NCBI RefSeq assembly: GCF_000003855.2
Contig: NW_003101682.1
Span: forward strand, 1,491,148-1,555,147
Direction: 5' to 3'
From: Blastomyces gilchristii SLH14081
Taxonomy: Eukaryota > Ascomycota > Eurotiomycetes > Onygenales > Ajellomycetaceae
Length of the DNA stretch: 64,000 bases
Shown here: positions 1 through 36,960 of the stretch, one piece after another
Layout of the letters: each line of letters opens with the position of its first letter
How positions within the stretch are numbered: the stretch's first letter is position 1
Position numbers and translations under genes: made by a program
The notes under the pieces: generated by a model
Database searches by the model: none
What the model saw: the letters and a program-made list of their open reading frames with translations, nothing else
Told to the model about the DNA's origin: nothing

Positions 1-16
1 ATCTATTCAAAAAATT

Positions 17-502
17 GTGTCCTGGTCTTTTATAAGAAGAAAAATAAAAGAATCTTGTTTAGACAAGTGGAATGAAAGCTGGCAGAAACAAAAGAAGAGT
101 ATACATTATTCAAGATTTGAAACAAAACCCAAGTGGAAATCTTGTTCAATTAAATGTAAAAAGAAAATATTCTCATCTATAATACAGCTGAAACTAGGAC
201 ATGGCTATTTCAAATCTTATATACAAAGATTTGATGATAGATTTGACTCAATAGAATGCTCATTCTGCAATACAAATGAGAATCCTGAGTATATTGTAAT
301 GCACTGTGCATTATACAATAGTCTCAGAGCCAGATTGAAAGAGAAGTATGATCTAAATCAATTAAATATGAGATTCTTATTCTCAACTGAGACAGGAATT
401 AAATACTTAATAGACTTTCTATCAGAAACTCAAGCAGCTACAAGAAAATGGCTAAATTCAGAATTATCTGAATATGAAGAGGAGGAAATCAATCAGATAT
501 AG
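17..502 (+). pseudogene. C-terminal fragment of LINE ORF2 (zinc-finger region after RNase H)
   Basis: An open frame of 161 codons runs to a TAG stop. Its start codon is only the first ATG in the window; the true protein begins upstream, outside the sequence. It contains a Cys-His cluster, CSFCNTNENPEYIVMHC, of the kind found downstream of RNase H in Tad1/I-clade reverse transcriptases. The same region in the long minus copy (58379-58880) is preceded by RNase H, which supports the assignment. The frame is undisturbed although surrounding repeats are riddled with stops. Function as a protein on its own is not expected. Confidence 0.75.
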
Positions 503-810
503 TCTGTTAAAACAGCTATACACTCTCTTTTAATAATTTGTTTTGTTATAGTCTCTCTTTACTTTATCTTTTTCTTTATCTTTTTCTTTCAATTTCTTTC
601 TATCTATCTGTTTAATGTGTCTATCTTTGAGACTGTGTTCTTTTTCTCTTTTCTTTTGTCATGATATTGTCAAATGGTTTCAAAGTATCAAAAGATGTTA
701 AAACACTGCAATTTGTAAACAGTTTTTGTATTCTGGGCTGGAATTTTCTGATTTTGCATATCTGAAATTGATGAATGTATAATAGTTAACTTTACAGACA
801 TAGAAAAAAC

Positions 811-832
811 CCTGAGAACTAAAGTTCTCAGG
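811..832 (+). other. Perfect hairpin in the LINE 3' untranslated region
   Basis: A 9-bp stem (CCTGAGAAC with GTTCTCAGG) closes a TAAA loop, about 40 bases before the AAT tail. The minus LINE copy keeps it at 58066-58087 and the short copy has a mutated version near 54450. In several LINE families a 3' hairpin is recognised by the element's own reverse transcriptase; that role here is inference. Confidence 0.6.
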
Positions 833-2303
833 TAGATGTCATAGTCTCTGACTGTATACATCTATAATTGAAGAATAATAATAATAATAATAAGATAATA
901 TAAATATCATGAATTCATGATAAGAGTTGATCTGAATAGATGAGTTCTCTCTCTGTGTCTTAATTATTTCTGAGCTGAATACTTCAGTATAACTGAGAAA
1001 GCAGACACAGCTTTATAAGAGATATCTGATTATATACACAGATAGTCAGCTCTTAAGACTCTGTTACAACTGTATATACTCTGATATTCAGCTTCTCTAA
1101 AGTCTGTGCATTTCTGACAGTCTTTATATCAAATATAATAATTGTCTGTACTGCAGATATAATGCTTTCTGCTTCTTTAAAGAGAGAAATTAGTAGTTAT
1201 AAGAGAGTTGAGTGTTACAGATATTAAGAATGTTGAGAATATAAGTATGAGTTTTCTTTATTTTTTCTTTATTAATCTCTAAATTGTGTTCACAGTTCTG
1301 TTTATTTTCTTATTTTTTAGCTTTAATAAGAATATGATTTCTTCTTCTCTTATATACACTGCAGACTGTTTATCTCAGTAGAAACTCATTATCTTATAGA
1401 CTAGAATTTATAAATAATAGTATTAATATCTTTATTATAATCAGGTTCTTAGTGAAGACTGCATCATTCTGACTTATCAGAATTTACAGTATGAAAGTCA
1501 TGTCTCAGCTTCTGCAGATATCTTATCTACTTGAATAATTCTCAAGTGAACTCATTTATCTTGTCAGAATACTCTTATCACTGAATCTTGAATCAGAGCT
1601 TATAATCTTACTTCTCTGAGTTAATAATTTCTTTAATCTGATATTCTCTTTCACTCTCTAGTACTTTATGAACAGAGTGATAAGTCACAGAGTTCTCTTC
1701 TAAGAATTTCTTATATTCACAGAGTAAGAAGACATGAAAAATATTATATATCTGTAACTTAGATAGCAGTTTTAATCTGTAGAATTACAAGCTAACTTTC
1801 TTTATAATCTTATAAGACTCTGTTTATAAGAGATTCAGCTTCTTACTAGATCTCTGTGTGATAATATTTTCTAGACTCAGTCAGACTCTATCATCTTTCT
1901 TAAAACTCTTTATAATATACTTAAAGTCATAGTATCTCTTCTGATACTCTTAAGTCTTTCTCAAGAATTTGTAAGCTTTCTTCTGAATCTTCTGAATTCT
2001 CTCAACTTGTTCACAGATATTATCACACTCTATAGTGTACTCTTACAGATTTATCAAGATTATCTGTGAATAAGTCTCAGTGAGCATCTCAAAGAGGGTT
2101 TTATCTGTGCTGACATGTTTTAAGTTATTGTATATAAACTTCATAAGTAATAATCAATACACTCAGTTATTCTGATTATAATTAATAAAGCACTGCAGAT
2201 ACTATTTTAATATACTCATCAAATGTTCTATCTAATCATCTATCTGTTAATAAAAAGTCATACTTAGATCTTATAAGATCTTCAGTATAGTTATCAGATC
2301 AGA

Positions 2304-2534
2304 TCAGAACTCTTCTACAAAGATTAATTCTCTATCTGAGATAATATTCATAGATAATTCATATAACTGAATCACATTATAAATAAAAATATGAGTTAAA
2401 TTCTTTGACTTTAAGTTCTTACAGATGAATATAAAGTATGTTATCTTAATAAAGTAATTCACTATCATCAGTACACTGTCAAAACAGGTATTATATATGT
2501 TCTTGCTTTCAGAGAGACTTATAAGAGCATTCAT
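2304..2534 (-). pseudogene. Gypsy integrase core remnant (family C copy 1)
   Basis: A 76-codon open stretch matches the retroviral-type integrase core. DSVLMIVNYF fits the first catalytic Asp region (family pattern D-ILVVVDRFTK) and ISDRELIF fits the second catalytic Asp region (ISDRGPQF). The conserved Gly-Pro after the second Asp is lost, as expected from G-to-A decay. It sits downstream of the reverse transcriptase remnant in minus orientation, the Ty3/Gypsy order. Confidence 0.7.
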
Positions 2535-3083
2535 TTCTAGCTATTCTCAAGATTCTCACAGAATGAGTAGAGAAGTAAGTTCTTTATATAATCTGAATCA
2601 CACTATCTGTGAACTCTGATAAACAGTATAAGAATTCACTATCTTCTTCACAAGTTCTCACATCTTCAGTCAGAAGTATTTTCTTATAAGTAACTTATAA
2701 GTTCTAGTGTCTGTAAAATGATCTGTTAGAGAAGAGTTATGATATCTTTTAATAAGTTCTACACATAGAAACTCATTCACAGGCATATAAATCTGACTCT
2801 CTCTTTACAAGAGATTATTTAAGTCTCTTCAATTCTTTATTTCTGCAGAATTGATTTCTGTTATAAGTAGTTTTTAAATATACTGAGTATATTCATTCTT
2901 CAGTTACAGTTCAGACAATCTGAATAGAAGATCTTGTAAAGACTTATACTCTGTTTCTTCTTATATCAGATCTTCTACAGTACTTCTCAAAGCCTGCAAA
3001 CTCTTCAGATTATAGATACTCTCTTCAAGAATTCTCACAGAGATTCTCAGAGTGTTAACTCTTAATATTATAGAGAGTAGTTG

Positions 3084-3589
3084 TAGACTGACCGTGTGAC
3101 CATGTCTGGGACCAGGACCAGATTTTTTGATAGTCCCATTACCAATTCGACTGATCCCATTACACGGTTTTAACATTAGATAGTAGTCTCATACTGTCCC
3201 AGTGGGACTTACTGTCTACTCTTGTCACATTTTCCAAATGGGACCATGATTTCCACTTCTCAATTTAAATTATTTTTATTGCTTTAAATGACTTTAAATC
3301 TCATTTGAGTGTTACCAAAAAGCGTTACTTTTTAAAAAATTAAAAATAGTCTAAAAAAAACCTTAAAATGTCTAAAAATAGTAACTTTATGCCAAGAATG
3401 GGACTAAATGGGACCAAATGGGACCACTTTCTCATTTTTTTCAAGTCATGGTTCCATTTTAAGATCTGATATATAGTCACTTTACATGTTTTTTTGATAG
3501 CCAGTCCCAGCGGGATTCACGCCAAGAAATGTATGGGACCAGACTAAATGGGATCAAACATGAAATTCATAGTCCCAGCGGCCAGTCTA
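3084..3589 (+). mobile_element. hAT-type MITE, copy 1 (506 bp, little mutated)
   Basis: Non-autonomous element with inverted ends TAGACTGACCG / CGGCCAGTCTA (10 of 11 bases complementary). It is flanked by an exact 8-bp duplication, AGTAGTTG, at 3076-3083 and 3590-3597. The homologous Gypsy copy C2 has the empty site near 48040-48055, which confirms the ends. No coding frame is present. The interior carries about a dozen TGGGACC-like heptamers in both orientations. Eight-base duplications with short inverted ends point to the hAT superfamily. Unlike the surrounding Gypsy DNA it keeps its GGGACC runs. Confidence 0.85.
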
Positions 3590-4068
3590 AGTAGTTGTAC
3601 AGACTTCTTCTCTCTCTCTCTTTTCTTCTCTTATAAGAAATTGAGAGACTCTTCAGTCAATCTCTTTATAACACTCAGTCTGAGTATTCTGTAAAGCTTT
3701 TCTATCTTCTCTAGTCTCTCTGTGTCTATCACTCTGATCTTCTTAATATAGTCTAATCTGTGAGAGAGTTCATTCACTGAGTTCTTAGTTCTCTTGATAT
3801 ATTCTATCTTGAATTAGAACTCACTCAGTCTCTGAGCTCAGTAAATCTACTACTGTGAGAGTTTCTTAATTAAAGTAAACTATTATAAGCTGTCATGATC
3901 AGTTCTAACAGTAATCACTGTTATAAGATTCTCAAAGTAGTGATATCAGTAACAGAAGAATTTTACTATTATAAGAAGCTTCTAATTATAAATACTATAG
4001 TTAATCTTCACAGATTACATCTTCTGTGAGAAAAAGATCACTGAAACTCAGTTCTCATTTAACTGTAG

Positions 4069-4251
4069 TTATAAGACTATTTCTGAAATTGTAAAGAAGA
4101 AGATATCTATCTTCAATCTAGTTAAGAGCAAGAGATTAAAGTAGAACAGTATCACTGTATTTATAAATATCTGTTTCAATCTTATAAAGATCTCATAAGC
4201 TTCTGAGATAAGAAAGTTCTCACAGTTCTCTCTTCTTAATAATCTTTTCAT
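4069..4251 (-). pseudogene. Gypsy RNase H-region remnant (family C copy 1)
   Basis: A 60-codon stretch with the pattern of the start of the Gypsy RNase H domain: a run ending EAYEIFIRLKQIFI (family: F-ELK-AFT-APVL), then a later DIFFFTISEIVL (family: DAS-FAIGAVL). It lies between reverse transcriptase and integrase remnants on the minus strand. The same stretch occurs in copy C2 at 48522-48704. Confidence 0.6.
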
Positions 4252-4767
4252 TCTTTATTTATAGAATGACTTCTTCTTATTTTCACTCTTCAGTATATCT
4301 ATAAGAGTCAAGAAGATTCTTATAAATACAAAGATAAATCATCTATAGAAATTCACAAAGCTCAGAAAGATTTAAATCTTATGAATACTAGTTAACTCTG
4401 ATTATAATAAAATAATCTCAATCTGTGAAGATTTCATCTGAATATTATCTGTGATAATTATATATTCTAGAAAATTAATCTGATAGACACTGAAGTTACA
4501 CTTTGTAAGCTTAATATACAGTTCTATCTTATCTAAGATCTTCAATATACTTCATATATACTCAGTGTGTTCTTTCTTCTTTATAAAGTACATTATCACA
4601 TTATTCAGATATATTATCACAAAGACATTCAGATATATATAAAGTGTTTTATTGATGAAGAACTGAAATGTTACAGAGATATTAATCAGATTAAAAGACA
4701 TCACTAGATATTCAAATAATCTCAGTGCAGTTTTAAAGACAGTCTTTCATTTATTCTCAGACTGTAT

Positions 4768-4959
4768 TCACAGCTGTGTATATATATTAATTATATTCAG
4801 TTGTATGAATATAACAGCTTCTATAAGACAGTTGATCACATTCTTAATCAGAGATAGAAAGTAGTGACTCTTTATTATCTTAAAGTTCAGATTACAGTAG
4901 TCTATACATAATCTGAGATCTTTATTCTTCTTCTTCACAAATATCACAGAGACTCTCAC
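4768..4959 (-). pseudogene. Gypsy reverse transcriptase remnant (family C copy 1)
   Basis: A 63-codon stretch contains KKKNKDLRLCIDYCNLN, the classic start of the Ty3/Gypsy reverse transcriptase palm, followed by YFLSLIKNVI and IFIQLNIINIYTQL (family: ysGAkvFTKLDLrsaYhq). The catalytic Asp of LDL is mutated to Asn (LNI), a G-to-A change. It cannot encode active enzyme. Confidence 0.8.
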
Positions 4960-6872
4960 AGAGACCTGTAAAGATTGAATAAAGTTATTCTTCAGATTCT
5001 TCTTTACATAGACTTATAAAACCTCTGTCTTATAATAAGAGAGCTTATAGATTAATTCTCAGAAGAGTTTCTACTCTTCTATTAAATCTATTATCAGATT
5101 CTTCTCATAGTGAGAGAGAAGCTCAGCTATCTTTGCTAAGCTGAATATCTCTATAAGATCTCAGTATTTCTCTGATATCTGAAGCTCAGTTTTCATGACT
5201 GTGAGATTCTCAGACACTCATAAGATTATTATATAGATGAGCTTATCTTCTCTAATTAACTTTGTAGTATTAACTGATTCTATCTTCATAAGTGAGTCTG
5301 TCAACACTGATTAGAAGTATAAACCTGACTCACAGACAGCTATGTGTGAATTATGTCTTTAAAGTTATACAAGTCTTAAGTACATATCATCTGTGATATC
5401 TGTGATAATTATAGTTTCTATAAATCTTCTTCAAATTTCAGAGAGATCTTGTAATTTAAAGATAACTCTTATAAATCTCTCAGCTCTCAGATCTGAGTTC
5501 TCATATTCTGCTTATTATAAGAGCAGATTTTCAGTTTTCATCTTTCAGCTCATTCACTTTATAAGCTTTAGAGACACTACAGTGATCTGAGATTCTGAGT
5601 TCACTAATACTTTTCATACTTACAGAGTAGCAGTACTGCAGTACAGTCTCTCTCTGTAAGTAAGTATTTTTATTAAGAGAGTAATAGATTCAGATATCAG
5701 CTTTAAGACTCTTAAGAAGACTGTTGCTGACTCTGTCTACAACTTCTTAAATTTCTATTTTAGTTTGTTCAGACAGTTTATACAGAGATGTTCTAATTTA
5801 GAATAGATAAAGCAGAGTTTCTTTTTCTTAATCTCTCTATTATACACTCTGTTCACAGAAGCTTATAAAGCTCTCTCTCTCTACTCAGCAGTCAGATATG
5901 AATTTCTCTATATCTTATTATCTTTTTCTAATAAATCTGTTCTCTATTATTTTAGCTCTTGCAGAGTTGATTAATAATCTGCTCTCTATAAGTCTATGAC
6001 TCTTACAGTGATCTGTAAGTGATGAATGAGAGTTATTAGTTTCTTCAGAGTCAAGAACTTAGAGTCTTACTCAATGAGCTTATTCTATATATCTTTATTC
6101 AGTCTCTTTATAAATATTATTATTCAGGTCTTATTTCAGAGCTCTGTTTTCACAGATCTTAATTTATATCATAATTTTATAAAGTACTGTGAGTAGTCTT
6201 TATCAGATTTCTCATCTCTTTTTCTAATATTATTAATTACAGCTCAGATGTTCTCTGTTCAGCTTACAGAGTCTCTCAACTTATTCTCTAAATAGATCTT
6301 AAGAATAGATCAGTGAGATCTCTCATAATTATTCTTTAAATAATTCAGTCAGTTCTTAGCTTCAGTGTAATAGAGATCTGTTATTATATAGATAACAGCT
6401 TCTTCATCTTTTATATCACACAGCTGAGCTTGTGAGTCAATTTCAAATATAAACTTATAAAAGTTTTTATAGATTGTGATTTAATAAGTAATCTTAAGTA
6501 ATTACAGCTTAAGAAAGTTTCTTTTCAGTTTGTAAGTGTCTCTGAAGATCATGTTTAGAGACTCAGTTCAAGAGTGTTTACAGATAGTAAGCATTTCTTA
6601 TAGAAAAATAGCTTGATTTTATAAGAGATGCTCAAGAATGTTCTTCATTGAGATTGATTTATTTAAGAATTCAGAGAGTTTCTCTGTCACAGATATAGAA
6701 AATAACATTCTATAAGTAATTAATAAGTTCTCTGAGACTTCTTTTATAAGAGTTATTCATAATTCAGATAACTGCTTCTGAGTGTCTGTAGTAGAGTTTG
6801 CAGAGATTGAAGTATATAAGTTTCTAGTTCTTTCAGTTATAACAGACAGTTACTGACTGACTGAGCTTGAAA

Positions 6873-7130
6873 TGTAAGAATAAGTGCTTACAGGTGATTA
6901 TTCAGATATTTACAGCTTGATATAATATATACTGTTAACTACTAGAAGTATTCACAGTAGAAAGATAAAATGTAGAGATTAAATGTATAATAGCATTTAA
7001 GCTGAGTTATGAATAGTATTTATAAACTTCAGTCTATATAGTTGTGTGTAGTCAAGAGCTGCTAGCCCTATTAATTATATGAGAGATAGAAATAGAGGTA
7101 AAGAATTCGCAAGAAGCGGGATTTCTTACA
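6873..7130 (-). repeat. 5' LTR of Gypsy family C copy 1 (258 bp)
   Basis: The repeat runs from TGTAAGAATAAGTGC to GGGATTTCTTACA on the plus strand, so it has TG...CA ends. An equal-length copy lies at 43944-44201, the left LTR of copy C2. The outermost 60 bases here keep CGC, GCGGG and GCCC where the C2 copy reads TGT, ACAGA and ACTC. Confidence 0.85.
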
Positions 7131-7133
7131 AAA

Positions 7134-8028
7134 AGTTCTGTAAGTTCTAGAACTGAGTAATTCAGTTTATTATTAAAAAGAAGTTATTATAAGAAGATTA
7201 TTAAAGAGAGTTACTAAGAGAAAGTACTGTACTCTGTAATAATTAATCTGAGAGAGAGTGTTAAAAATTCTGTAGTTAATTAACTCTTCTATTAGTAGAT
7301 ACTGATAATAATTAAGCTCTTTTATCTCAGTAGTTTACAGATTATAAGACTGTTAAGTATAAGTTCTACTATAATTAACATATATAAGTTTAATCTTAGA
7401 ATGAACTTAAAAATTTCTAATAAATACTCTGTATATTTTAACAGTATTAAGAGATATCTTAGAAGTATACTCTAGAAGTTCTATGAGTTCTAAAACTAAG
7501 TAATTCAGTTCATTATTAAAAAGAAATTATTATAAGAAGATTACTGAAGAGAGTTACTAAGAGAAAGTACTATACTCTGTAATAGTTAATCTGAGAGAGA
7601 GTGTTAAGAGTTCTATAGTTAATCAGCTCTTCTATCAGTAGACACTGATAATAATTAAGCTCTTTTATCTCAGTAGTCTACAGATTATAAGACTGTTAAG
7701 TGTGAGTTCTGCTGTGATCAATATATATATAAATTTAATCTCAGAATGAACTTAAAAATTTCTAATAAATACTCTGAATATTTTAATAGTGTTAAGAGAT
7801 ATTTCAGAAGTATACTCTAGAAGTTCTATGAGTTCTAGAACTGAGTAATTCAGTTCATTATTAAAAAGAAGCCATTGTGGGGAGATCACTGAAGAGAGTC
7901 ACTGAGAGGAAGTACTATACTCTGTGATAGCTGGTCTGAGGGGGGGTGTTGGGGGTCCCATGGTTGGTCGGCCCTTCTACCAGCAGGCGCTGGTGGTGAT
8001 TGAGCTCTTTTGCCCCAGTAGCCTACAG
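7134..8028. repeat. Tandem repeat, about 2.6 units of 343-345 bp, at the AT-rich/gene-island border
   Basis: Units begin at 7134, 7477 and 7822, each opening with AGTTCTRTRAGTTCTARAACT. The third unit stops near 8028 (CAGTAGCCTACAG). Units 1 and 2 are AT-rich and lack CC/GG/CG; unit 3 switches near 7872 to a GC-rich version differing almost only by C-to-T and G-to-A changes. No convincing coding frame is present in any unit, and I do not recognise the repeat. Confidence 0.8.
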
Positions 8029-10683
8029 TATAGGGCGAAGATGACAATATCCAAATCTATGGATATAACCAGCATCAGCGGCCAAAGAAAAATAGAGCTA
8101 GCTGCCTGCAAATCTTTGCAAAATCCATTCCATTTAATTGGGTTAAGTTTGAAGCAAGCAGCAAGCAAGTGAACGCGAGGACTTCGAATGTTGGATATCT
8201 TGGCTGTGTATGACCAGGTGGGGGAGGATTGTTTTCCAATAGTTGGTGCCGCCAAAGACCTTGTAACTACTCCGTACATCCGTAGCTGCTGTTTAGATCG
8301 GAGTAGCTGGCTCGGGGTATGTGGATTTTGATAAGAATGCCTTGTTGGATACGGGCCTTGGGGATATAAGAAATCAATGTATGTACATACATGTACATGT
8401 ACGGAGTACGGAGAACATGTACTTGTACATTAACCAGCGCAGCTCACCGCCTGGAAGCCCAACAAGCTATCAAAGGAAAACATGCGAGCCAAAACCATAG
8501 CCGCAAATTGTTCCCCTTTCTTTCAAATCTATGGAATGAAAATGACACAACCATGATGAGAGAAATTGAGAAAATCAGGGTTGTTGTGTTGAAGGTTGTT
8601 CCAGAATATTCCCAGGATGTCTGTCTGTCATCATGATAAAAAAAAAAAAGTTTTCAATCAAGGCGGTGGTTGAAAGCTGCCAGGGTTCTGGGCTTCTATT
8701 CGTGGGTGGCGGCTGGGGCGGCGACCAACCAAGCAGTAGCTGGTTACGTAGTAAGTAGTTAAGTTAGTCTTTGCCGTTTTAGACGAAATTGAAGCCACCT
8801 GACAAATCCGGCTGTTTGATTGGACGAAACTTCATCCATCTTCTTGGAAGAGGAGCCACAGACAGACAGACAAGACAGTTGACGTTTCAAACGTAATAAT
8901 AATTTTTTAAAAATATTAAATCAGATGTTACAGCGTATGTCCGTTCCTGCGCAGGCGCCCCCCACCGCACCGCTCCAACGAAGTCTGGCTTCTGAAACCA
9001 ACCTCGCATTGTGAAGTCATCGATACCTGCCCTGCCTTGCGGCTTCTCTACCCTAGTTAGTTAGCTAGCACCCAAACAGGCTTTTGCGACTTTCTTTCAT
9101 TTTTTCATTTTTTCATTTTTATTTTATTTTGCCATGACGTACGTGCAACTGCATTTAGTTAGTAGAGTGGTAGGTTCAAAAAGTCAACGATTGCTGAAAC
9201 CCCCAGGCCTGGATATTTCTCCCGGACAAGGAAAGGGCTGTCCCGCCTAGGACTGGCCTCGTTTCTTGGGCAGCACCATTTTCTCCGGCCAATTATTAAA
9301 TGACTTAACTAACTACGGAGTACGGACTAACAGTGAGGCAGTGCAGAGTCAAACCTGGCTAGGCTTGTTCCGCTGATTTGCTAGCCGGATCGGATCGGTG
9401 GTGGTGGTTGGGTTGCTTGCTTGCTTGCTTGCTTAACTTTGACCCTGGCCAACAACCGCCCAAACCAAGGTTCAACCCATGCTGCGCCTTCTTCCATTAT
9501 TTATATGATTATTCTTCTTCTTCTTCTCAAACCTTGCAACACCCACCAAAAGCACAAAACAACCTATGATATGATTTCCTCGCGGATGGCAAAGATCCTT
9601 TGATATGGAAGAATTACTTATTATTACTACTCCCTACAGCGTAATAATAGGGATCGTCAGACCGAGAATATAAAACCATGCAGGTTTTTGCTCCGTACTG
9701 TAGAATGATAGATAACATAACGCAAATGAGAAATTCCGGATGCGCGAAGTGCAATTAGGGCGTATTTAAATGCATGCGACCAACCTGCTGGTCATTGTAC
9801 AGAGTAACTAGTAGTACCTCCGTACTTGTAGAGCTAAAGACTGACTGACACGTCTGACGGTCGCCAACTATCAGCTTCCCAAGGACCAAGGTCTCTCGTC
9901 TCAGGATATGTCTGTGGTGTGGTGGAAGAAGCCGCACGCGTAGAAGTTGACGGAGCCATTGAACTTGGCAATTCGCCGTAGATCGTCCCAAGGGGCCAGA
10001 GAATGAATAATAATAATAATGAATGCGCTGTTCTGTTGTGTAAAAGCGGGTTTTTTTTTTTTTTTTTTTTTTTTTTTGCCCCAGCCAGTCCTCTCGTTGA
10101 ACTGAAGCCTCCTCCTCCTGGCCTGGTCTTCTTCCCCCAAACTTCCTCACCTCACCTCACTTCAACGTCCGGCCCATTCTTCCTCCGGCTTCAATTTGAA
10201 GCTCCATTTCTTCTTCCCTCGCTGTGCACGCGCTGCTCTCTTGCTTTCCGGCCGGTTCCCTGACCTATCTATCTATCTTCGATTCGATTAGCACCGCTTG
10301 ATGGCCAGATATTCAACACTGCTTTCTTCCAACCTATTGGCTTCCACCGCATTGATAGCTTGTGGACGACCGCCTTGAGTACTCTCCTCCCCCCCCCCCC
10401 CCCAAAGGCGGACTTGGGCCTATCGATAGGCAATTTCCTGTAGGTCATTGAATTATGACATTATATCCTGACGTTTATCCATTTTTGGTTCTCCTGTTCT
10501 TCTTGATATTGAGCCAATTCCCGTTGCAAAACTCGCTCCCCGCAATAAATGAGAGAGCTCCGCTGCGCGCTCCTTTACCCCATCCCATCTCCCCAGCCCT
10601 TATCAATTGCAAATGCTAACCATAATTCCTTTTTGCTAGCGGAAACTGTTTTCGAAGTTCTTTGCCGCCTGTGTATCTGTTGG

Positions 10684-10714
<31 letters not shown>

Positions 10715-10869
10715 CACGCGTTGGACTTTGCTCGAGCTCCATTCAACTTGACCATGCTACACTCGTGGTGATCTAATCAACATTTTCATGGCTGGATGTC
10801 CGTGACCTTTTCTACGAGACCTTTTTACGCCAAACTCTTCACTCTGTCACAAAGTTTCACATCGCAATC
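8029..10869. other. Intergenic region upstream of the Ca2+-ATPase gene
   Basis: No coding region is supported; open frames here are short and low in complexity. It holds a TGTACATG-rich patch at 8379-8430, GCTT repeats at 9412-9435, CTAT repeats near 10266, a T27 run at 10051-10077, a C-run near 10388 and a T29 run at 10686-10714. The word ACGGAGTAC or its complement recurs (near 8273, 8401, 9316, 9692, 9822). The last 500 bases are pyrimidine-rich and probably include the promoter and 5' leader of the ATPase gene. Confidence 0.6.
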
Positions 10870-13800
10870 ATGTCACAACCACCACGGGACGATGACTCCC
10901 TTCCTCCTGCGGGCCCTCCTCTACGGCGCGAGCGTGCACCTACCATTACAATAGATACGTCCGCTGTGAGCGCAGGCGGCGAGCTATCCCAACCCCAAGA
11001 TCCCCTAGATGGAACACAACCCACCCCGCGGATTCCACCCGAAGATTCAGATGCAGGCTCCAGACGCTCCGGCGAACCCCCATCCCCTACTGAGCTGCGC
11101 TCTGTTCAGTCCTTTGAGGGAAGGGATAAGGGAAGCCGCCCAACCTCGCCCCATAACGTTTCATCACCGACTACAAAATGGCCCGAAAGCCAATCCCAGA
11201 ACTTCTTAGCCGTTCCTGGAACTCGATCGCGGGTAAACTCTGTGGATTCCGAGGAGGCAGGCAATTCTCCTGGTTCTGTTGAGAGTGACACCTATGTTGC
11301 GTCCGCGCCTTCAGGTCAAGATCGCCGGTCACGAGATGTTGACCGTGATGTACACGACATTATAAGTGACCCAGATGCGCTGAAGCCGGATCCTGGCACG
11401 GAGGATGATTTTGTGGTCAAAGATAATAAATTCGCATTTACCCCGGGTCATTTGAACAAAATGCTGAATCCCAAAAGTCTATCCGCCTTCTACGCTCTCG
11501 GTGGACTCGCAGGGCTTGAAAAGGGACTACGATCAAATTGCCAGACAGGTCTCAGTCTCGATGAAACAACTTGGGAAGGGACGGTTAGCTTTGAGGAGGC
11601 GACAAAGCAGAGGAGTCGGGTTACCGTGCTGGATATGAAGATGCCCCCCCGCGTGATGAGCATGAAAGCGGACACCCATCACCACCATGCCAAGGAGCGC
11701 CAATTTATCGACCGGAAACGTGTCTTCAGCGATAATCGACTGCCAGCAAAGAAGGCTAAATCTATATGGGAACTCGCCTGGATCGCCTACAACGACAAAG
11801 TACTGATACTACTCTCGGTGGCGGCCGCTATATCTCTTGCCCTCGGAATATACCAGTCCATCACAGCCGCAGAGGGCGAACCCAGGATACAGTGGGTGGA
11901 AGGAGTGGCTATCATCGTTGCTATTGTTGTTGTGGTTGCTGTCGGTGCTGCCAATGACTGGCAGAAGGAACGGCAGTTTGTGAAGCTCAACAAGAAAAAG
12001 GAGGACCGGTCAGTCAAGGTTATACGGTCTGGAAAATCCGTGGAAATATCTGTTTATGATATTCTGGCTGGGGATGTGATGCACCTAGAACCAGGTGACA
12101 TGGTTCCCGTTGATGGCGTGTTTATTCAAGGGCACAACGTGAAATGTGATGAATCCTCCGCTACCGGCGAATCTGATCTGTTGCGGAAAGTCTCCGGGGC
12201 GGATGCATATCGAGCCATTGAAAACCATGAAAGCCTTGCAAAAATAGACCCGTTTATCTTGTCAGGAGCTAAAGTTTCTGAGGGTGTTGGCACGTTCCTT
12301 GTCACTTCCACCGGTGTTAATTCCAGCTACGGGAAAACTATGATGTCGCTCCAAGATGAGGGAGAGACAACGCCTTTACAGACGAAGCTTAACATTCTCG
12401 CTACATACATTGCGAAACTCGGTCTTGCAGCGGGTCTATTGCTCTTCGTGGTCTTGTTCATCAAATTTTTAGCGAGTTTGCAAAGTATTGCGGGCCCTAC
12501 TGCCAGAGGGCAAAATTTCCTTCAGATCTTCATCGTCGCCGTTACCATCATTGTTGTTGCAGTCCCAGAAGGATTACCGCTCGCTGTAACACTAGCACTG
12601 TCGTTCGCCACAAGCAGGATGTTAAAGGACAACAACTTGGTGCGTCTATTAAGAGCTTGCGAGACCATGGGTAATGCGACCACAATTTGCTCGGATAAGA
12701 CGGGTACACTGACCCAGAATAAAATGACTGTTATCGCCGGCACAATTGGAACCGCTTCTCGATTTGGCGACAAAGCTAGCCAGGGAATCTCTGGCCAAAA
12801 TGGCAGTAATCAAAATTCTCCTGCTGCAGAGGTAAACGACGTCACCCCGACGGAATGCATCGCCACATTATCATCTTCGGTGAAGGATCTTTTAAAACAA
12901 TCCATTGTGCTAAACTCAACGGCTTTCGAGGGTGATGAAGATGGCGTTACAACATTTATCGGGTCGAAAACCGAAACAGCACTCCTCAGCTTTGCTCGAG
13001 ATTATCTTGCCTTGGGTTCGCTTAGCGAAGAAAGATCTAATGCAACAATCGTTCAACTTATACCGTTCGATTCTGGTCGAAAATGCATGGGTGTCGTCAT
13101 GAAGCTGCCAAATGGGAAATTCAGGATGTTTGTTAAGGGCGCTTCCGAGATTCTCATTGCTAAATGCGCAAAAATCGTTCTCGATCCTGCTGGTGATTTA
13201 GCAGAAACGCCCCTTACGAACATCAACAGAACTACTCTTGAGGATATTGTAGAGAGTTACGCATCAAGGTCGCTACGCACAATTGGTATGGTCTACCGAG
13301 ATTATGATCAGTGGCCCCCTCGCGGCTCCCCTACACAAGAGGACGATCGCAGCATGGCTGTTTTCGAACCAATTTTCAAAGATATGGTCTTCCTAGGTGT
13401 AGTGGGTATTCAAGATCCTCTACGCCCGGGTGTTACGGAGTCTGTCATTCAGTGTCAAAAGGCTGGAGTGTTTGTTAGGATGGTTACCGGCGATAATTTA
13501 ACAACAGCTAAAGCTATAGCTCAAGAGTGTGGCATCTTTACGGCCGGCGGAGTTGCAATGGAGGGCCCGAGATTCCGGAAACTTAGTTCCCAGCAAATGA
13601 GCCAGCTCATCCCAAGATTGCAAGTCCTCGCACGATCTAGCCCAGAAGATAAAAAGATATTGGTTTCTCAACTGAAAAAGCTAGGGGAGACCGTTGCTGT
13701 CACTGGCGATGGTACTAACGATGCTCCAGCCCTGAAAGCAGCCGATGTTGGTTTCTCCATGGGTATTGCTGGCACCGAAGTTGCCAAGGAGGCTTCGGCT

Positions 13801-15425
13801 ATTATTCTCATGGACGACAATTTCACATCTATTGTGAAGGCCATATCTTGGGGAAGAACCGTTAATGATGCTGTGAAGAAATTTTTACAGGTAAACATTT
13901 CTTTCCTGTTCTTTCAAAACCTACCTAGTTGGTCTTTCTAATGTTTGGTTTCCCTTAGTTTCAAATCACGGTCAACATCACTGCTGTTATCGTCACCTTC
14001 GTGTCGGCCGTAGCCGATGAGGATGAGGAATCGGTACTTACAGCTGTTCAGCTGCTATGGGTCAATCTCATCATGGACTCATTCGCTGCCTTGGCTCTAG
14101 GTAACCCACCTGCATGATTTACGATTGCAAAGATGATGAAACTTCATCGCTAACTCTTACTTCAGCAACCGATCCCCCAACCGAAACCATTCTAGACCGG
14201 AAGCCTGAACCCAAATCTGCCCCATTAATCACGTTGACCATGTGGAAAATGATAATAGGACAATCGATCTACCAGCTTGTCGTCATATTCATTCTCAATT
14301 TCGCAGGAGAAAATATTCTTAACTACGACTTCAATGGGGGTAATCGGGAAAATGAAAGGGCCCGCTTTAAAGCCCTTATTTTCAACACCTTCGTTTTTAT
14401 GCAGATTTTCAATCAATACAAGTAAGGATGCCGCCACAGCAACGCTTCGAGCTAATATGGGATGCTAATACTATTCTGATCCGTTTTATAGTTCCCGACG
14501 TATTGACAATGGCTTCAATATATTCGAAGGATTACTCCGCAATCGATGGTTCATCGGCATCCAGTTTATTATCGTCGCCGGTCAGGTCCTTATCATCTTC
14601 GTTGGTGGTGAAGCGTTTCATACGAAACCTCTAAATGGTGTCGAGTGGGGCGTATCTATCATCCTAGGCCTCTTGTCCATGCCGATGGCTGTGATTATTC
14701 GGTTGATACCAGACGAGTTCATTCAAAAATTAATCCCTGAAGTCTGGACTCGCAAGAAGACGGGTCCACAAGTTTTCGTCTCCGACGAGGATCGCTTCGA
14801 GTGGAACCCTGCTCTACAGGAAATCAAAGATCAGCTGGCATTCCTCAAGACTGTCCGTGGTGGACGCCTCAATCACTTGAAGCACAAACTGAAACATCCG
14901 GAGATTTTGATCCCAAGATCCAGGAGTGGCTCGAGATCCCGAGATAGCTCTATCCCACAGACACCTGTCGACGGCGCGCAAGACGTTACATCGCCGCCCC
15001 CAGGAACTCCGGAATCACGCTCTCGCAACAGCCGGTCACGATCCAACTCAAATTTGAGACCGGCAGCGGTGATGGCAGGCGTAGTTGCTGGTAGTATTGG
15101 AGGTTGGTCGCCTGTGGGACGAGGCGTAGGAGAAGCAGATTCGCTCAAGTTTTCACGGTCCAGTCGACACTCGGGTCTCGGAGACCAGAAGGGAATTGAA
15201 GTCCATCCCGATACACGAGACGACGACCCCGTCGTCAGCGACTACCCATACTCCACTCACGTTCCTCCAAGCCAGAATCCAGACTTGGCACCAGATTTCC
15301 CGCATGGCCCTTCCCACTCGGGCCCTCCAAGTCACGGTCGACGATCCACTTCTAGGCAATCGAGGCAGTCGTCTAACAATAACACCAATAACAGGCCCCC
15401 AAGCCCAGCGGCTCCGCCGTCCTAA
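10870..15425 (+). CDS. P-type Ca2+-ATPase, PMCA/Pmc1 type (P2B)
   Basis: Predicted calcium pump that uses ATP to move Ca2+ from cytosol into vacuole or out of the cell. Four exons: 10870-13890, 13959-14100, 14166-14421 and 14492-15425; introns of 68, 65 and 70 bp with GT-AG ends; 1450 residues. A Ser/Pro-rich N-terminal region of about 170 residues precedes the core. Visible motifs: TGES (about 432-435, actuator), PEGLP (566-570, ion-binding helix M4), DKTGTLTQ with phosphorylated Asp609, and [11 protein letters not shown] (945-955). Hydrophobic segments lie near 311-331, 343-361, 515-537 and 550-580, with six more encoded by exons 2-4. The long Ser/Arg-rich tail ends in PPSPAAPPS. The PEGLP rather than PEGL-IV/SERCA pattern, plus closest-memory similarity to fungal Pmc1 proteins, support P2B. 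Location (vacuole or plasma membrane) cannot be read from sequence. The gene looks intact. Confidence 0.93.
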
Positions 15426-16414
15426 ATATTTCCTTAACTAAGTTTCTACATGCGAACAAATTTGGGTGGTAATAAGGGTGATTTTCGCTAATCTTTGCTG
15501 CAGAACTTGTCCTGCTCCTTTGTCCTTTACGTTTTGCCGCGGTCCGTTGCTGCGGGCAAACGTTTCTTTTAATTAATTCTAGGTCGAACCTAGAGTCTTA
15601 TTCCATTCCGCACTCCCACCTGAAATGCGACTTTTTGTTTGAGTCAGATATGTTCAATACTGAGTAGAATGCGCGTTTGGGTCTATCAAAAATACTTTTG
15701 TACTAAAATGAAAAAAAAAAGGAAAAAAAGGGAAAAAAAAGGGAAAAAAGCGCAGTACAACATTTGCATAAGCTTGGCGTGTGGTTGGGGCCTGTTTTAT
15801 TTTCTTCTATTTTTTCCTTTCCTCTTGACTGACTTGTTTCCCTTTCCTTTCCTCCTACCTTTCTTCCGACGGAGGCCACTTTTTTTCCATTTTTCTTTCT
15901 CTATCTCAGCTACCCCGGCTATCGTTTTACTTATTTTATATGTTACATTTATCATGCCGCTGTCCCGGCCCAGGCCTTCGTTAGATTATCTTTTACTCTG
16001 CTCACTTCCCATTCTCATTTCTCCAGTTTACTTTTTTTGCCTCGCCATCTCGTCGTGGGCATTTCATCTACACACTTCACTTTTGTTTCTGAATGCTTTC
16101 ATTTTGTTTTTCATGGCCTCCCCTTGATTGCATCCGCCCACTTCCCTATTTTCTTCCTCTTTTCCTGCCAATTATTTCTTTATAATAGTAAAGATCTATT
16201 CTCCTCGTTTTCTATTTTCGATTACTGATATTTTCTTCTCTCTTCTCTTGACTTCTATTTGCTTGCCCCTTGGCCAATTTCGCAGAGAGGTTAGGGACAC
16301 CTTTTTAATTCGGAAACCTGTGGATTCTCTCATCCAGCTTGTTTCCCTTTTTCCTTTCGGCGTCTTTGAAATACTACCCTGGTTGCGGATTTTTTTTCTC
16401 CCGTCTCCCGTTCT

Positions 16415-16417
<3 letters not shown>

Positions 16418-16457
<40 letters not shown>
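16418..16457. repeat. Poly-T run, 40 bases
   Basis: Uninterrupted T tract in intergenic DNA downstream of the Ca2+-ATPase gene. Confidence 0.9.
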
Positions 16458-16462
<5 letters not shown>

Positions 16463-17004
16463 GTACTCTTATCTTCTAACTATAGACGTTTGGGCGTGTG
16501 TTGCCAAATAGGGAACATCATAATTAATATCAGGTTACTTGAGAAATTTCCACACTTACAATTTTTGGCTTGGGGCTATTTGCTATACATTCTGAGAGGA
16601 AGGACTCATATATGTCCGTGAATCACTCACTATGTTTGAAAAACCTGATATGATAATGATTGGCTATGCTTGCCTTCGGAATAACTTTGTGTAGTTGAGC
16701 ATTGGAGCATTTGACGGTGTCTTTTTTGTCTTTTTTTGCCGCGCGCTAATGTAGACAACAAGCAGAGCAGACCTGAAGACACCAATTATAGATTTCTCTT
16801 ATCCATGCTTACTGAGTAAAGTTAAAGCCCTACCTACCGTCAAATCCCAGAATGACATCCCTTCCTTTCCCCCTGGCTTGCATCTCGCCCTGGAGCACTG
16901 CGAAAGTAAGCAGCCAGTCTGGGTTCCCCGACCCAAAAACCCTTAGCAGCCTTGCTCTCATAGGCCTAATTCTTTGAAAATGTTAAAGATATGACGAGGA
17001 AATT

Positions 17005-17005
<1 letters not shown>

Positions 17006-17052
<47 letters not shown>
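17006..17052. repeat. Poly-T run, 47 bases
   Basis: Longest homopolymer in the window, intergenic. Its length as assembled is probably approximate. Confidence 0.9.
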
Positions 17053-17053
<1 letters not shown>

Positions 17054-18085
17054 TTGCATGTTGATGGGGATGTGTGGCAAAGCTCTCTCCAACATGAGCC
17101 TGAACAATTCTCCCGGTCACATTTATCCATTTTTATATCAGTCCACGACGTCAGAGACTAAGTTTACCTACCCCAGCAAACCGATCGAAAGTAAGCAGTA
17201 GTTAGTAGCCACGGTTGATCGAATTGGTGCCTCCCCCCACGGCCTGCCTAACTAACCATGCTGTCTGTCATTCTGGCCAGTTGTCTGAGAATTTTCACAC
17301 TCGATCTGTTATTTGAGGATACAACTCTAGTGTTCACACAGGAGGAGCGAGCACAAAAAAAAAAAAAAAAAAAAAAAAAAAGTTCGTGAACAGGCCGTAG
17401 GAGCTGAGCTCTCTCTATCGGATTCCTGATGAGTTTAATTTCCCCAGCTGAAATAGAGTGGACAATTATCAATTCTCATTCCGAGCTGTTGTTTTTGTTG
17501 CTGCTGCTGTTGTCGCCGGTGGGTCAAGACTCAAAGGTGCAGTAACTAGTTAACTAGAGCAAATGGCCTGCACAAGCGGAGAAATTCACATTTGCCGTGT
17601 GGACCAATTCTTGCATAATTCACCAGACAAGCTGCCTTGGTTGTTCCTAGTTCCCTCGGGCCGGCGACGCGGGGGTCCGGGGATGGCGCGAATGTCAAAT
17701 GAACATCGAGCGACAGACGAGGGGGTGATGATGCCTTCAAGGATCAAATCAAGTGGGAGATCTCCAAGCCCGTGAAACAAAGCTCGTGTGGTGGCTGCAA
17801 GACTCACTTTTTTGCCGCAACCTCATTCGTACTATCTATCACCCAATGTTCCCACACAGAGAGCAAGGATGAGCTGGCTTTGTGGATTGCTTCTTATTAA
17901 ACTACACCGAGTACGGAGTACATAACTAACTACCAAGCGACTCCTCGCCTCTTCTTCTTCTAAATTCCCGACTGTCTCTCTCTGTCTTAGCTTCTGCTGG
18001 ACAAACATAGGAGCGGAACCGGGCCCTTTCAATCCTCCTCTCCTAGTTGCTGTCTAGCCTTAATCTCTACGCCAATCGAGTCGCC

Positions 18086-19555
18086 ATGTCCTCCATAATA
18101 GATTCCTCTGCCATATTCTCTGTGGCCCAAAAACTGCTCGCGACTGCGAAGCCATGGGCCACCATCCCCTTCTTGGGCCCTGCGGTCTATCTGATTACAG
18201 TGGCGCTACTCCGCAACAGAAGGATAAAGAAGAACGTAAAGAAATTCAACTACACGACTCGACAGTCGATGGCCCGGATGAGTGATGATGACGCATGGAA
18301 CATTCTCCTAGACGCTGGCCAGATGGAGTTCCCCTTCACTTATCTTAAGGCGCTGCAATTCGCTTTATTTAGGGTACGTTCGATTTCCTCAACCTTTTAT
18401 CACGCTCGAATGCCCTCTTCTACACGTCCTATAAAAACCGCTTAACTAACTGGTAAACTTGATATCTACCACGTCTGTGGCATAGACCTATGGAATCCCC
18501 ACCATCTCCAAAACCCTGGTGCAAACCGGCCAATTTGCCAAACCTGAATTCTCGATGAAACGGTATGCGGATACATCTGTGCTGATTGCAGAGTTCGTGG
18601 GCAACCCCCCTTCTTCAGAACGTGGTAAAGCGGCAATCGCCCGCATGAACTACCTCCACCACGGGTATAGAATGTCCGGGAAAATCCTCGATGACGACAT
18701 GCTCTATACTCTAAGTCTGTTCGCACTAGAGCCAATTCGCTGGATCAACAGGTACGAGTGGCGCCAGGCTTCTGATCTCGAAGTGTGTGCTATTGGCACC
18801 TTCTGGAAGAGCGTAGGAGATGCTATGGAAATTAGTTTCGAGAATCTACCATCGTCCAAAACAGGGTTCAAGGATGGTATCCAATTTTGGGAAGAACTCA
18901 GAGTGTGGAGCGAGGGTTACGAGGAGAGAGCTATGATTCCCAGTGACTGGAACAAGAAGAATGCCGACCAGACTGTCGCAGTTCTCCTGTGGGATTATCC
19001 TGCTTTAATGAGACCTCTGGCTCGGAATATGGTGGTTTATATGATGGATGACCGCCTGCGGGAGGCGATGCTGTAAGCGTCTTCCTTTTATCTTATTTTC
19101 TAACCCGCAATAATCCCTACGAACGAACAACTAACTCCCACGCGATATGCAGGTACGAGAAGCCGCATGCCCTATACAAAATTGCCTTTGCTGCAGCTTT
19201 CAAGCTTCGAAAATGGTTTCTCCGTTACCTCTCCCTTCCCCGTCCGGAGTTCATGCGGTTCCACCGCATCGCTCCAGGCACCAGTTCAGAAGCTCGTTAT
19301 TGTTTACGCAACTGGGAAGGAGCACCATTCTACATCGAACCAACCTTCATGAATCGGTGGGGACTTCGTGCATGGTACACATGGCTTCGGGGGATGCCAC
19401 TTCCGGGTGACAACCCCGAACATTGCCCGAACGGATATTATCTCCCTGACGTCGGGCCAAAGAAATTCGAGGGCAAGGGGCATGACCAGGTCAAGAAGAC
19501 AATGGAGCGGTTACATACAGAGCGAACCGGCCAGTGTCCATTCCTTTTCAAATAA
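18086..19555 (+). CDS. MpaB-like ER-bound oxygenase (DUF2236 family)
   Basis: Three exons: 18086-18373, 18486-19072 and 19153-19555; introns 112 and 80 bp; 425 residues. The ATG at 18086 is chosen because the open frame upstream has only a TTG. Residues about 25-45 form a hydrophobic helix followed by RNRRIKKNVKK, a likely membrane anchor with a basic cytosolic flank. The body matches the DUF2236 family: MNYLHHGY, then DDDMLYTLSLFALEPIRWI, then YEWR and GTFWKSVGDAMEI. DUF2236 covers MpaB of mycophenolic acid biosynthesis and bacterial latex-clearing oxygenases, where a His-rich helical core holds haem. Substrate here is unknown. No biosynthetic backbone gene lies nearby, so a secondary-metabolite role is not indicated. 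The frame is intact. Confidence 0.8.
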
Positions 19556-20265
19556 ATAGACTTACCTTGAAATTGCGGTTTGACTTGGAAGTATGAGATA
19601 CCCTGACCCTTTCAACTTGCCGTGGGATTTTACAAATGAAGGATGCAGGGGAACAAAGATGAGAGGCCGCTAGGCTGAAAAGATTTCTCGTAGATCGACT
19701 TATGCGGTTACCAGAACCATTTCCTCCTGAATTACATATGTCTTTTTTTTCTTTCTCTCTCTAGTGGGTCAACTGAACTTCTACACGAACTACGCAGTAC
19801 ATGCAAGAAGCTTCCTCAAGGGGTTCGGCGGGAACTTCAACATTATACGCAGCTAGACAAAGATAATATAGCTATCTCTATAACAAATGCCCGCTGTGGA
19901 ATAATGTCCTGATTGTTTTCTTCCATCTTGATGTTTGTGCAGGTGGGTGTGCTAGCTTTAAGGTTTCTCAATCCAGCTCCCAATTAGGCCTAGGGCGATC
20001 GGATAAGCTTAAGTTGACCGCACCAGCAACTACCCGGGGCTAGCCGCACACATCCATGTTTAGCCTGTCCCCGCCGCAAGTTCGCGGTTGCGTGATGTCA
20101 GCGCTGGTGCAAAATATGCCGCGTAGCTCTTATATACACAGTTACATATGTCATTTGTGATGGAAAATTGGACCGCCTCAAGGGATCCTTGTATGGCCTT
20201 ATATAATAGCCGCAAAAGCTGCATCTTCCCCTCATCTTCCCACTCCCCCTGTTCTTCGTTGAAGC
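19556..20265. other. Intergenic region before the P5C dehydrogenase gene
   Basis: About 700 bases without a supported gene. A short CT-rich stretch lies at 19741-19763. The last 200 bases presumably include the promoter and leader of the dehydrogenase gene. Confidence 0.5.
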
Positions 20266-30184: not shown

Positions 30185-30186
30185 TT

Positions 30187-30356
30187 GATATTGTCACACT
30201 CCCGGCCGCGCCAAGGCCCTGTTGCGGTTCCACACGGCCCATCGCTTCCATGCGGATGATTCCATCCATCCCGCAGGCCGTTTGAACCGGTTTCCAACCA
30301 CCCTATGACATCATTCGGATATATCATAGGAAGATCCGATTGATGGATATGAGAAC
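30187..30356. repeat. Dispersed repeat, unmutated copy
   Basis: A GC-rich stretch (GATATTGTCACACTCCCGG to ATATGAGAAC) has a same-orientation, mutated relative at 57835-58004. Nearly every CC, CG and GG here reads TC, TG/CA or GA there, while CA and TG are unchanged. No terminal structure or coding frame allows a family call; it could be part of an LTR or a DNA transposon end. Confidence 0.7.
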
Positions 30357-36512: not shown

Positions 36513-36845
36513 TGTAAGAGATCTACACTGAATAGATCAGTATAATATTGATAGATCTTATATAATAAAGATAAAAACATTAAAGAAGAAAAGAAAGAGA
36601 AAGTGTGAGAATCAGTGATTGAGATGAATATTTATACACATATGTGATGATGTACACAGTGGAGCTTCAGAGTGGAAGAATATACATGTGTTCGTAGCGG
36701 CCGAGGATCGGTGATCAGGAATGGTCAAGAATCAGAGTGTATGTTACGCGCGTTCGTAGCGGCTGAGGATCGGCGATCGGGAATGGAAGAATCTATGGAG
36801 TGTAATGGAATAGTCTATATGATTGATCGGGCGCAGCCCGCCACA
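36513..36845 (-). repeat. 5' LTR of element A (GC-retaining)
   Basis: 333 bp. The outer half keeps GTAGCGGCCGAGGATCGG-type sequence and includes a 62-bp-spaced direct repeat (TTCGTAGCGG at 36691 and 36753). Plus-strand end CCCGCCACA is the complement of the TGTGGCGGG that opens element B. Confidence 0.9.
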
Positions 36846-36850
36846 GCTTT

Positions 36851-36955: not shown

Positions 36956-36960
36956 ACTTA

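What the first reader, a model, noticed from the sequence alone, without database searches (positions are those of the whole stretch)
894..7870. Repeats have almost no CC, GG or CG but keep CA and TG: a C-to-T process unlike classical RIP
In 1000-3000 I count only about half a dozen CC/GG/CG words, where base composition would predict on the order of a hundred CC plus GG alone, yet CA and TG are everywhere. Neurospora-type RIP targets CpA and would remove exactly those. Paired copies in this window (30187 vs 57835; LTR pairs of A and B; tandem units at 7134-8028) show changes chiefly CpC to TpC and CpG to TpG on both strands, with some CpA changes. A cytosine methylation/deamination or RIP-like process with CpC/CpG preference would explain it.
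Basis: partly seen in the sequence, partly recalled or inferred. Interest (0 to 1): 0.75.

Follow-up and report, generated by a model that had tools for sequence, protein, structure and literature searches.

The report
CpG/CpC-targeted RIP-like hypermutation in Blastomyces repeats
In the repeated DNA of this Blastomyces fungus almost every C followed by C or G has been turned into T, which looks like a version of the fungal defence called RIP with unusual target letters that standard RIP scores miss, and one abundant transposon family carries genes already nearly stripped of those target letters.

Summary
Observation confirmed. At 1000-3000 there are 0 CG and 6 CC/GG, against 40 and 81 in shuffles. 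A single-copy AT-rich kilobase of the window keeps its CC/GG. The host is a Blastomyces.

Copies from across the genome show C-to-T change with a hierarchy: CpG and CpC, then CpA, then CpT. In one long family 43 ancestral CpGs are inferable; 0 of 688 copy-sites are still CG. A LINE-type copy in the window differs from six agreeing relatives only by C>T/G>A: CpC 16/29, CpA 17/153, CpT 2/191. CpA is not spared: between long saturated copies most differences are at CpA, and lost CpGs create new CA/TG.

Best reading: a repeat-directed, RIP-like process with CpG+CpC preference, probably through the RID/DmtA protein (inferred). CpG-type RIP is reported in Uncinocarpus, same order; in the passages I opened no CpC preference was reported. 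CpA-based RIP indices of 77 mutated kilobase windows positive.

Most novel: 13 LINE-type copies keep long open pieces with C or G at 0-1% of synonymous CpG and 5-7% of CpC sites, host genes 44-54%: elements that may have shed RIP targets.

The parts
888..3085 (+). Long repeat F2, copy A (first part), saturated: no CpG, almost no CpC
   Evidence: Pairs with 45860-48052 at 87.5%; CpA 140/267 and CpT 52/388 differ; 858 first-look candidates, 40 scored, for 46312-47800
3082..3589 (+). 508-bp repeat F4 nested in F2 copy A; lightly hit (GC 0.36, CpC 27% of C) although both flanks are saturated
   Evidence: 2484 first-look candidates, 40 scored, the other 39 at 97-99% identity; F2 copy B is uninterrupted here (48043-48052)
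3590..7128 (+). F2 copy A (second part), saturated
   Evidence: 3590-6618 pairs with 48043-51071 (88.5%), 6868-7128 with 43938-44199
7037..8028 (+). About 343-bp tandem units at the edge of the gene-rich block; the earlier units are mutated, the last keeps CpG/CpC in its later part
8029..30226 (.). Gene-rich control block, GC about 0.47, C about evenly followed by A, C, G and T
26001..27000 (.). Single-copy AT-rich (GC 0.35) control: CC/GG not depleted, CG mildly low
30227..30356 (+). Unmutated 130-bp piece of a repeat family that lies about 2.3-2.4 kb upstream of reverse-transcriptase hits at 11 loci (Gypsy-type by inference, possibly its terminal repeat)
57875..58004 (+). Mutated copy of 30227-30356: 8/8 CG and 15/15 CC lost, 12/12 CA kept
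31753..42024 (.). Inverted pair of a long repeat (arms about 31.75-36.4 and 37.3-42.0 kb), saturated arms
36513..36845 (+). 333-bp repeat F5, lightly hit (GC 0.40); related copies at 31057-31389, 36956-37278, 42905-43226
42003..42529 (-). F4 copy, more hit than 3082-3589
45860..51071 (+). F2 copy B, saturated; its 46312-47800 stretch was used for the 16-copy alignment
52495..53022 (-). F4 copy, more hit than 3082-3589
58005..64000 (-). LINE-type retrotransposon copy (by appearance; runs off the window), up to 95.7% identical to its relatives over 59696-61036; frames interrupted by many stops
1..894 (+). Fragment matching 58004-58880 on the opposite strand (end of the same element)

Best explanation
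The AT-rich blocks are transposon copies hit after insertion, on both strands, by a repeat-directed C-to-T process that works like RIP. Its per-site preference is CpG and CpC first, then CpA, then CpT, instead of Neurospora's CpA first. Shown here: the direction (C>T/G>A), the context hierarchy, independent loss of CpG in each copy of one family, and absence of the CC/GG loss in the few single-copy stretches tested. Inferred: that it is premeiotic RIP carried out by the RID/Masc1-type protein (DmtA), perhaps with DIM-2-type methylation, and that homology and length rules confine it. Because CpG and CpC are exhausted first and CpG loss creates CpA/TpG, old copies look CpG/CpC-free but CpA-rich, and CpA-based RIP indices fail.
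For: Direction: the window LINE-type copy against six agreeing relatives over 1258 sites has 35 changes, all C>T or G>A: CpC 16/29, CpA 17/153, CpT 2/191 (CpC vs CpA p=6e-7). F4, 30 copies: T cells in C and C/T columns CpC 10.2%, CpG 6.0%, CpA 3.4%, CpT 0.1%. F2, 16 copies: 485 transition columns against 31 others; 43 columns show both TG and CA, so had CG; 0 of 688 cells are still CG (TG 186, CA 200, TA 302); CpA 56% T, CpT 21% T. In-window unmutated/mutated pair: all CG and CC lost, CA kept. Synonymous sites of 13 LINE-type copies: NNC fraction 0.01 before G, 0.07 before C, 0.30 before A, 0.45 before T; host genes 0.44-0.59. Repeat restriction: a reverse-transcriptase stretch without close copies (L078; other matches 67-76% identical, none full length) keeps GC 0.51 and 44 CpG, about 0.8 kb from a sharp drop to GC 0.20; a single-copy AT-rich kilobase keeps CC/GG. 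PMC4595289 (passages) gives genes inside GC-poor tracts 47-48% GC. Enzymes: RID-type protein of B. dermatitidis with PPCQ and MEET stretches invariant in eight aligned proteins, DIM-2-like with BAH, DNMT5-like.
Against: No strand clustering of hits within copies: of 18 copy tests one had z above +2 (the tandem units) and three were below -2; F4 and F5 showed none. So a single strand-biased round is not visible; repeated rounds or slow deamination would also fit. F5: T fractions CpG 0.19, CpC 0.22, CpA 0.24, though pairwise differences rank 0.29, 0.28, 0.11. Private changes in LINE subfamily 2 show a weaker hierarchy (CpC 6/17, CpA 29/143, CpT 19/178; 91 of 182 private changes are transversions), and in F5 CpC 2/4, CpA 7/12. 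CpG against CpA in F4 is not significant (p=0.07). F4 and F5 copies are the closest to lightly hit queries. The length idea is not clean: selected copies of the long LINE family are also hit less than F2. No bisulfite, cross or mutant data. Very little single-copy DNA was tested.
Confidence: 0.82

Rival explanations
1. Not RIP, or not RIP alone, but slow decay of 5-methylcytosine: repeats are methylated at CpG and CpC by DIM-2/DNMT5-type enzymes and deaminate over time. (Not exclusive of the best explanation; the confidence is for a main or contributing role.)
For: All three methyltransferase types are encoded; hits fall on both strands without clustering. PMC4165359 (passages) describes an atypical methylome in Uncinocarpus of the same order.
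Against: The nested F4 copy is lightly hit although its flanks are saturated, but it may be young. F2 has about 8-9 times more CpA change per transversion distance than the short F4 and F5, as a length-dependent process would give; but F4/F5 sampling is biased to low change, and the long LINE subfamily 1, also selected, is 5.6 times lower than F2. DNMT5 is thought to maintain CG methylation (PMC7862722, passages), which would not give CpC.
Confidence: 0.3
2. The depletion is intrinsic to the transposons: they arrived AT-rich and CpG-poor and copies were hardly mutated.
For: True in part for the LINE-type family: only 8 inferable CpG columns in 1341 (6 per kb), open pieces up to 319 codons, 96-98% identity within subfamily 1.
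Against: F2 had at least 43 CpGs in 1484 columns (29 per kb) that are gone in all 16 copies, with TG, CA and TA in different copies; the 130-bp piece exists unmutated and mutated in this window.
Confidence: 0.06
3. Classical CpA RIP plus ordinary CpG decay.
For: CpA is the most frequent difference between long saturated copies.
Against: In lightly hit copies CpC exceeds CpA per site 2.7 to 5 fold (30/53 vs 14/68 columns; 16/29 vs 17/153); the CpA substrate index is 1.27, like the gene block's 1.23.
Confidence: 0.03

Closest known systems
Repeat-induced point mutation of Neurospora crassa (RID-dependent)
   Same: C-to-T on both strands in repeats; RID-type and DIM-2-type genes present
   Different: Neurospora and Leptosphaeria prefer CpA (PMC4352252, PMC5555474, passages); here CpG and CpC are hit first and CpA later. 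Premeiotic timing and dependence on rid are untested.
CG-preferring RIP of Uncinocarpus reesii (same order, Onygenales)
   Same: CG rather than CA as predicted RIP site; DIM-2 homologue plus RID/Masc1 homologue (PMC4165359, passages, citing a 2010 methylome paper that I did not see)
   Different: The passages speak of CG only; here CpC is an equal or near-equal target. Whether CpC is hit in Uncinocarpus was not tested.
CpG-then-CpA RIP in Aspergillus nidulans MATE elements; TpCpG hypermutation in Microbotryum
   Same: CpG preference (PMC2621366 and PMC5381629, passages)
   Different: No CpC preference described in the passages seen
CpA-type RIP with some CpC loss, Stagonospora nodorum
   Same: Repeats there are depleted of CpC and GpG too (PMC2621366, passages)
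   Different: [quoted passage not shown] Mycosphaerella graminicola likewise has CpA bias (PMC4522978, passages)
GC-poor gypsy-rich isochores of Blastomyces
   Same: Same genus; GC-poor tracts at 29.6-31% GC full of retrotransposons (PMC4595289, passages)
   Different: The passages seen name no mutational cause or dinucleotide pattern; supplementary text was not read

Membership tests
RIP (repeat-induced point mutation) | C:G to T:A changes restricted to repeated DNA | tested here: met
   Direction. Restriction rests on few examples: the gene block, one single-copy AT-rich kilobase, one reverse-transcriptase stretch without close copies
RIP (repeat-induced point mutation) | Each copy mutated independently after duplication | tested here: met
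   43 F2 CpG columns carry TG, CA and mostly TA in different copies; tested on one family
RIP (repeat-induced point mutation) | RID/Masc1-type protein encoded | tested here: met
RIP (repeat-induced point mutation) | Minimum repeat length (about 400 bp in Neurospora, as quoted in PMC2621366) | tested here: inconclusive
   333-bp and 508-bp families are less hit per transversion distance than F2, but so is the long LINE subfamily 1; sampling is biased
RIP (repeat-induced point mutation) | Occurs before meiosis and needs rid | not testable with these tools
   Needs crosses and a deletion
Classical CpA-type RIP | CpA is the preferred target; CpA-based indices positive | tested here: not met
   CpC above CpA per site; 0 of 77 window and 0 of 228 flank kilobase windows positive
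CG-type RIP of Onygenales | CpG is a main target | tested here: met
   0 of 688 CpG cells survive in F2
CG-type RIP of Onygenales | CG alone named as target (as in the passages of PMC4165359) | tested here: inconclusive
   CpC is also a main target here; whether it is in Uncinocarpus was not checked (no such genome used)
5mC decay without RIP | Cytosine methylation at CpG and CpC in repeats | not testable with these tools
   No methylome used or seen for this genome

The most novel reading that the evidence does not exclude
Retrotransposon lineages in Blastomyces have become resistant to their host's RIP by shedding its targets. A LINE-type family with a recent burst (1450 first-look candidates for L095; 40 scored, the other 39 at 97-99% identity) has kept long open pieces while synonymous C or G fell to 0-1% at CpG and 5-7% at CpC sites, and may thereby have spread through, and helped build, the GC-poor part of the genome.
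Probability: 0.4. Interest if true: 0.82.

Novelty: new variant of a known kind. Interest (0 to 1): 0.62.

Why it matters
RIP surveys score CpA loss. By such scores none of the 77 AT-rich kilobase windows here, nor 228 from flanks elsewhere in the genome, counts as RIP-affected, so a clade of fungi may be misread as RIP-free. A RID protein with a CpG/CpC preference would be a natural comparison for finding what sets the target letter. [quoted passage not shown]

Tried and rejected
Strand clustering as a test for one-round RIP: none in F4 and F5; in nine window pairs (18 tests) one z above +2 and three below -2; not decisive. Protein-level purge of the LINE-type element: Pro, Gly, Trp and Arg are 0.70-0.84 of their level in 109 aligned homologues, but Ala, which does not require these dinucleotides, is 0.68, so general AT drift may explain it; dropped. 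Typing F2 by Pfam: three open pieces gave no match over a curated cut-off (one weak hit, E=0.003); F2's class is unknown. The labels LINE-type and Gypsy-type rest on reverse-transcriptase matches and layout and on the published element list, not on a full classification. First alignment of F4/F5 mixed orientations and was replaced; the first window-LINE comparison (last part) used the wrong strand and was replaced. LINE subfamily 2 has many transversions, perhaps because L076 matches the others over only part of its length; its weaker counts are given under evidence against. L092 had no open piece of 60 codons and fell out. L065-L077 are 13 hits with matches of about 740 bases among 150 scored of 3909 candidates, ranked by domain score, so biased to intact frames; most still carry one or more stops. 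F2 copies: 14 of the 39 other scored matches plus two window copies. Flank bins lie beside copies of two repeats, not at random. Literature: ten searches; 15 papers were opened, as passages (one outline, PMC5381629, and one section, of PMC5374152, besides). None of the passages reports CpC as a preferred RIP target, but many listed papers were not opened, and a 2009 Coccidioides genome paper was not held; the 2010 methylome and 2011 RIP survey cited by others were not looked up.
Full report
What was claimed and what is there. Exact counts agree: 1000-3000 has 0 CG and 6 CC/GG where 500 shuffles of the same bases give means of 40 and 81, with minima of 25 and 53. CA+TG is at its expected level (209 against 201) and CT+AG is well above it (351 against 204). 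The pattern is not confined to the interval. Over 1-7.9 kb and 30.45-64 kb together (GC 0.284), of 11,553 C on both strands 1.2% are followed by G, 3.2% by C, 38% by A and 57% by T, while the gene block 8-30.3 kb has 21, 26, 27 and 26%.

Whose DNA. The window lies in a 74.8-Mb, 75-contig genome. Its RID-type gene product, read unspliced, is 87% identical over 95% of the query to 'C-5 cytosine methyltransferase DmtA' of Blastomyces dermatitidis. Blastomyces is known for long GC-poor, gypsy-rich tracts: GC 29.6-31%, genes inside them still 47-48% GC (PMC4595289, passages with its Table 2). The strain was not identified.

Direction and context. (a) The window's LINE-type copy at 59696-61036 was compared with six relatives at sites where all six agree. 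Of 1258 sites, 35 changed, 22 G>A and 13 C>T and nothing else. By following base: CpC 16/29, CpA 17/153, CpT 2/191; no CpG was available. (b) Private changes in that seven-copy set: 81, of which 60 C>T/G>A, 17 the reverse and 4 transversions; CpC 20/31, CpA 33/169, CpT 4/193. (c) The 508-bp F4 family, 30 copies: variable columns CpC 30/53, CpG 8/19, CpA 14/68, CpT 1/47. (d) In-window pair 30227-30356 and 57875-58004: 28 changes, 26 of them C>T or G>A; 8/8 CG and 15/15 CC lost, 6 of 7 GG lost, 12/12 CA and 4 of 7 TG unchanged. Counted per C on both strands this is CpG 10/16, CpC 13/22, CpA 3/19, CpT 0/6.

Each copy was hit separately. For the long repeat F2 (46312-47800; 858 first-look candidates, 40 scored, the other 39 at 89-90% identity), 16 copies were aligned: 485 transition columns against 31 other variable ones. 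In 43 columns both TG and CA occur, which implies an earlier CG; across 16 copies the 688 cells are TG 186, CA 200, TA 302 and CG 0. So the ancestor had at least 29 CpG per kb and each of the 16 copies lost all of these.

Results that cut against a simple statement. In the tandem units CpA is also commonest in number (39, against CpC 14, CpT 13, CpG 2), although all 14 CpC and both CpG sites differ. In F5 the cell fractions put CpA level with CpC and CpG, whereas pairwise differences do not. LINE subfamily 2 shows a weaker hierarchy in private changes. CpG against CpA in F4 alone is not significant (p=0.07).

Is it repeat-directed? A single-copy AT-rich kilobase, 26001-27000 (one match in the genome), has CC+GG at 72 against 62 expected, and CG at 20 against 31, a mild CpG shortage that is far from the near-zero of the repeats. 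A reverse-transcriptase stretch, L078, whose only other matches are 67-76% identical and not full length, has GC 0.51 and 44 CpG; about 0.8 kb beyond it the sequence drops between neighbouring 300-bp bins to GC 0.20 with no CG, CC or GG. The nested F4 copy at 3082-3589 is lightly hit between saturated flanks. These are few examples, and age is a confounder for F4. Per transversion distance, F2 shows about 8-9 times more CpA change than F4 and F5, but also 5.6 times more than the long LINE subfamily 1, so a length rule is not established.

Synonymous-site test. Choice between NNC and NNT never changes the amino acid, so the base after it gives a clean context test. In 36 open pieces (4912 codons) of 13 LINE-type copies the C fraction is 4/543 before G, 29/404 before C, 226/761 before A and 286/630 before T. 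For NNG against NNA by the second base it is 2/439 (CpG), 16/304 (GpG), 168/549 (TpG) and 348/916 (ApG). Four host stretches give 0.44-0.60 throughout. L095, one stop-free piece of 275 codons, gives 0/34, 1/25, 14/40 and 15/33. The copies are related, so these counts are not independent, but single copies repeat the pattern. The ancestor of subfamily 1 therefore probably lacked most CpG already: only 8 inferable CpG columns in 1341, against 43 in 1484 for F2 with more copies. L095 has 1450 first-look candidates; of 40 scored, the other 39 are 97-99% identical. The reading that target loss helped it spread is a hypothesis; purging by mutation with selection only on the protein would look the same.

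Mechanism. The genome encodes a RID-type protein (PPCQ and MEET stretches invariant among eight aligned relatives; that these mark the family is recalled), a DIM-2-like protein (methylase plus BAH; best solved relative 9bap, E=2e-146; the class name is recalled) and a DNMT5-like one (7r76, E=3e-58; class name recalled). The most likely account is RIP by the RID protein with a CpG/CpC preference, at about 0.8 for a RIP-like process overall; RID as the enzyme is inference. Decay of methylated cytosine is the main rival and cannot be excluded without methylome or genetic data; the two may both act.

What is known. PMC4352252 (passages) lists CpA, CpT and CpG signatures in ten fungal genomes and none at CpC. 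RIPCAL's paper (PMC2621366, passages) gives CpG-then-CpA in Aspergillus nidulans, and in Stagonospora a dominant CpA change together with some depletion of CpC and GpG. PMC4522978 (passages) gives CpA in Mycosphaerella graminicola. PMC4165359 (passages) states that Uncinocarpus reesii is predicted to be RIP'd at CG. PMC5872316 (passages) finds low GC in Coccidioides elements consistent with RIP. PMC11540331 (passages) mentions RIP in Blastomyces as a dating caveat. The 59-genome survey PMC7882544 holds none of the terms Blastomyces, Onygenales, CpC or CpG and uses TpA/ApT above 1.15, substrate at most 0.75, composite above 0. With a product cut-off of 1.1 and the same substrate cut-off, 0 of 77 AT-rich window kilobases, 0 of 228 flank kilobases and 0 of 16 F2 kilobases pass; the composite index alone is above zero in 9, 8 and 4 of them. 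The finding is thus a new variant of RIP as far as the passages seen go.

Noticed in passing
7037-8028: Tandem 343-bp units; many of the genomic copies have an extra 82-bp end piece before the unit, which looks like a miniature element with short terminal repeats that recombines into tandems.
   Followed up: partly
31753-42024: Two about 4.7-kb copies of one repeat in inverted orientation with lightly hit 333-bp repeats between them, a near-palindrome.
   Followed up: no
36513-36845 and relatives: 333-bp repeat with 3007 first-look candidates in the genome (40 scored); copies keep up to 39% of their C in CpG; possibly a SINE.
   Followed up: partly
51080-51852: Run of 773 N, an assembly gap or withheld stretch inside the AT-rich block.
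   Followed up: no
L078 (G000:C2:927807-928489): Reverse-transcriptase stretch of normal GC without close copies, beside a sharp isochore edge.
   Followed up: partly
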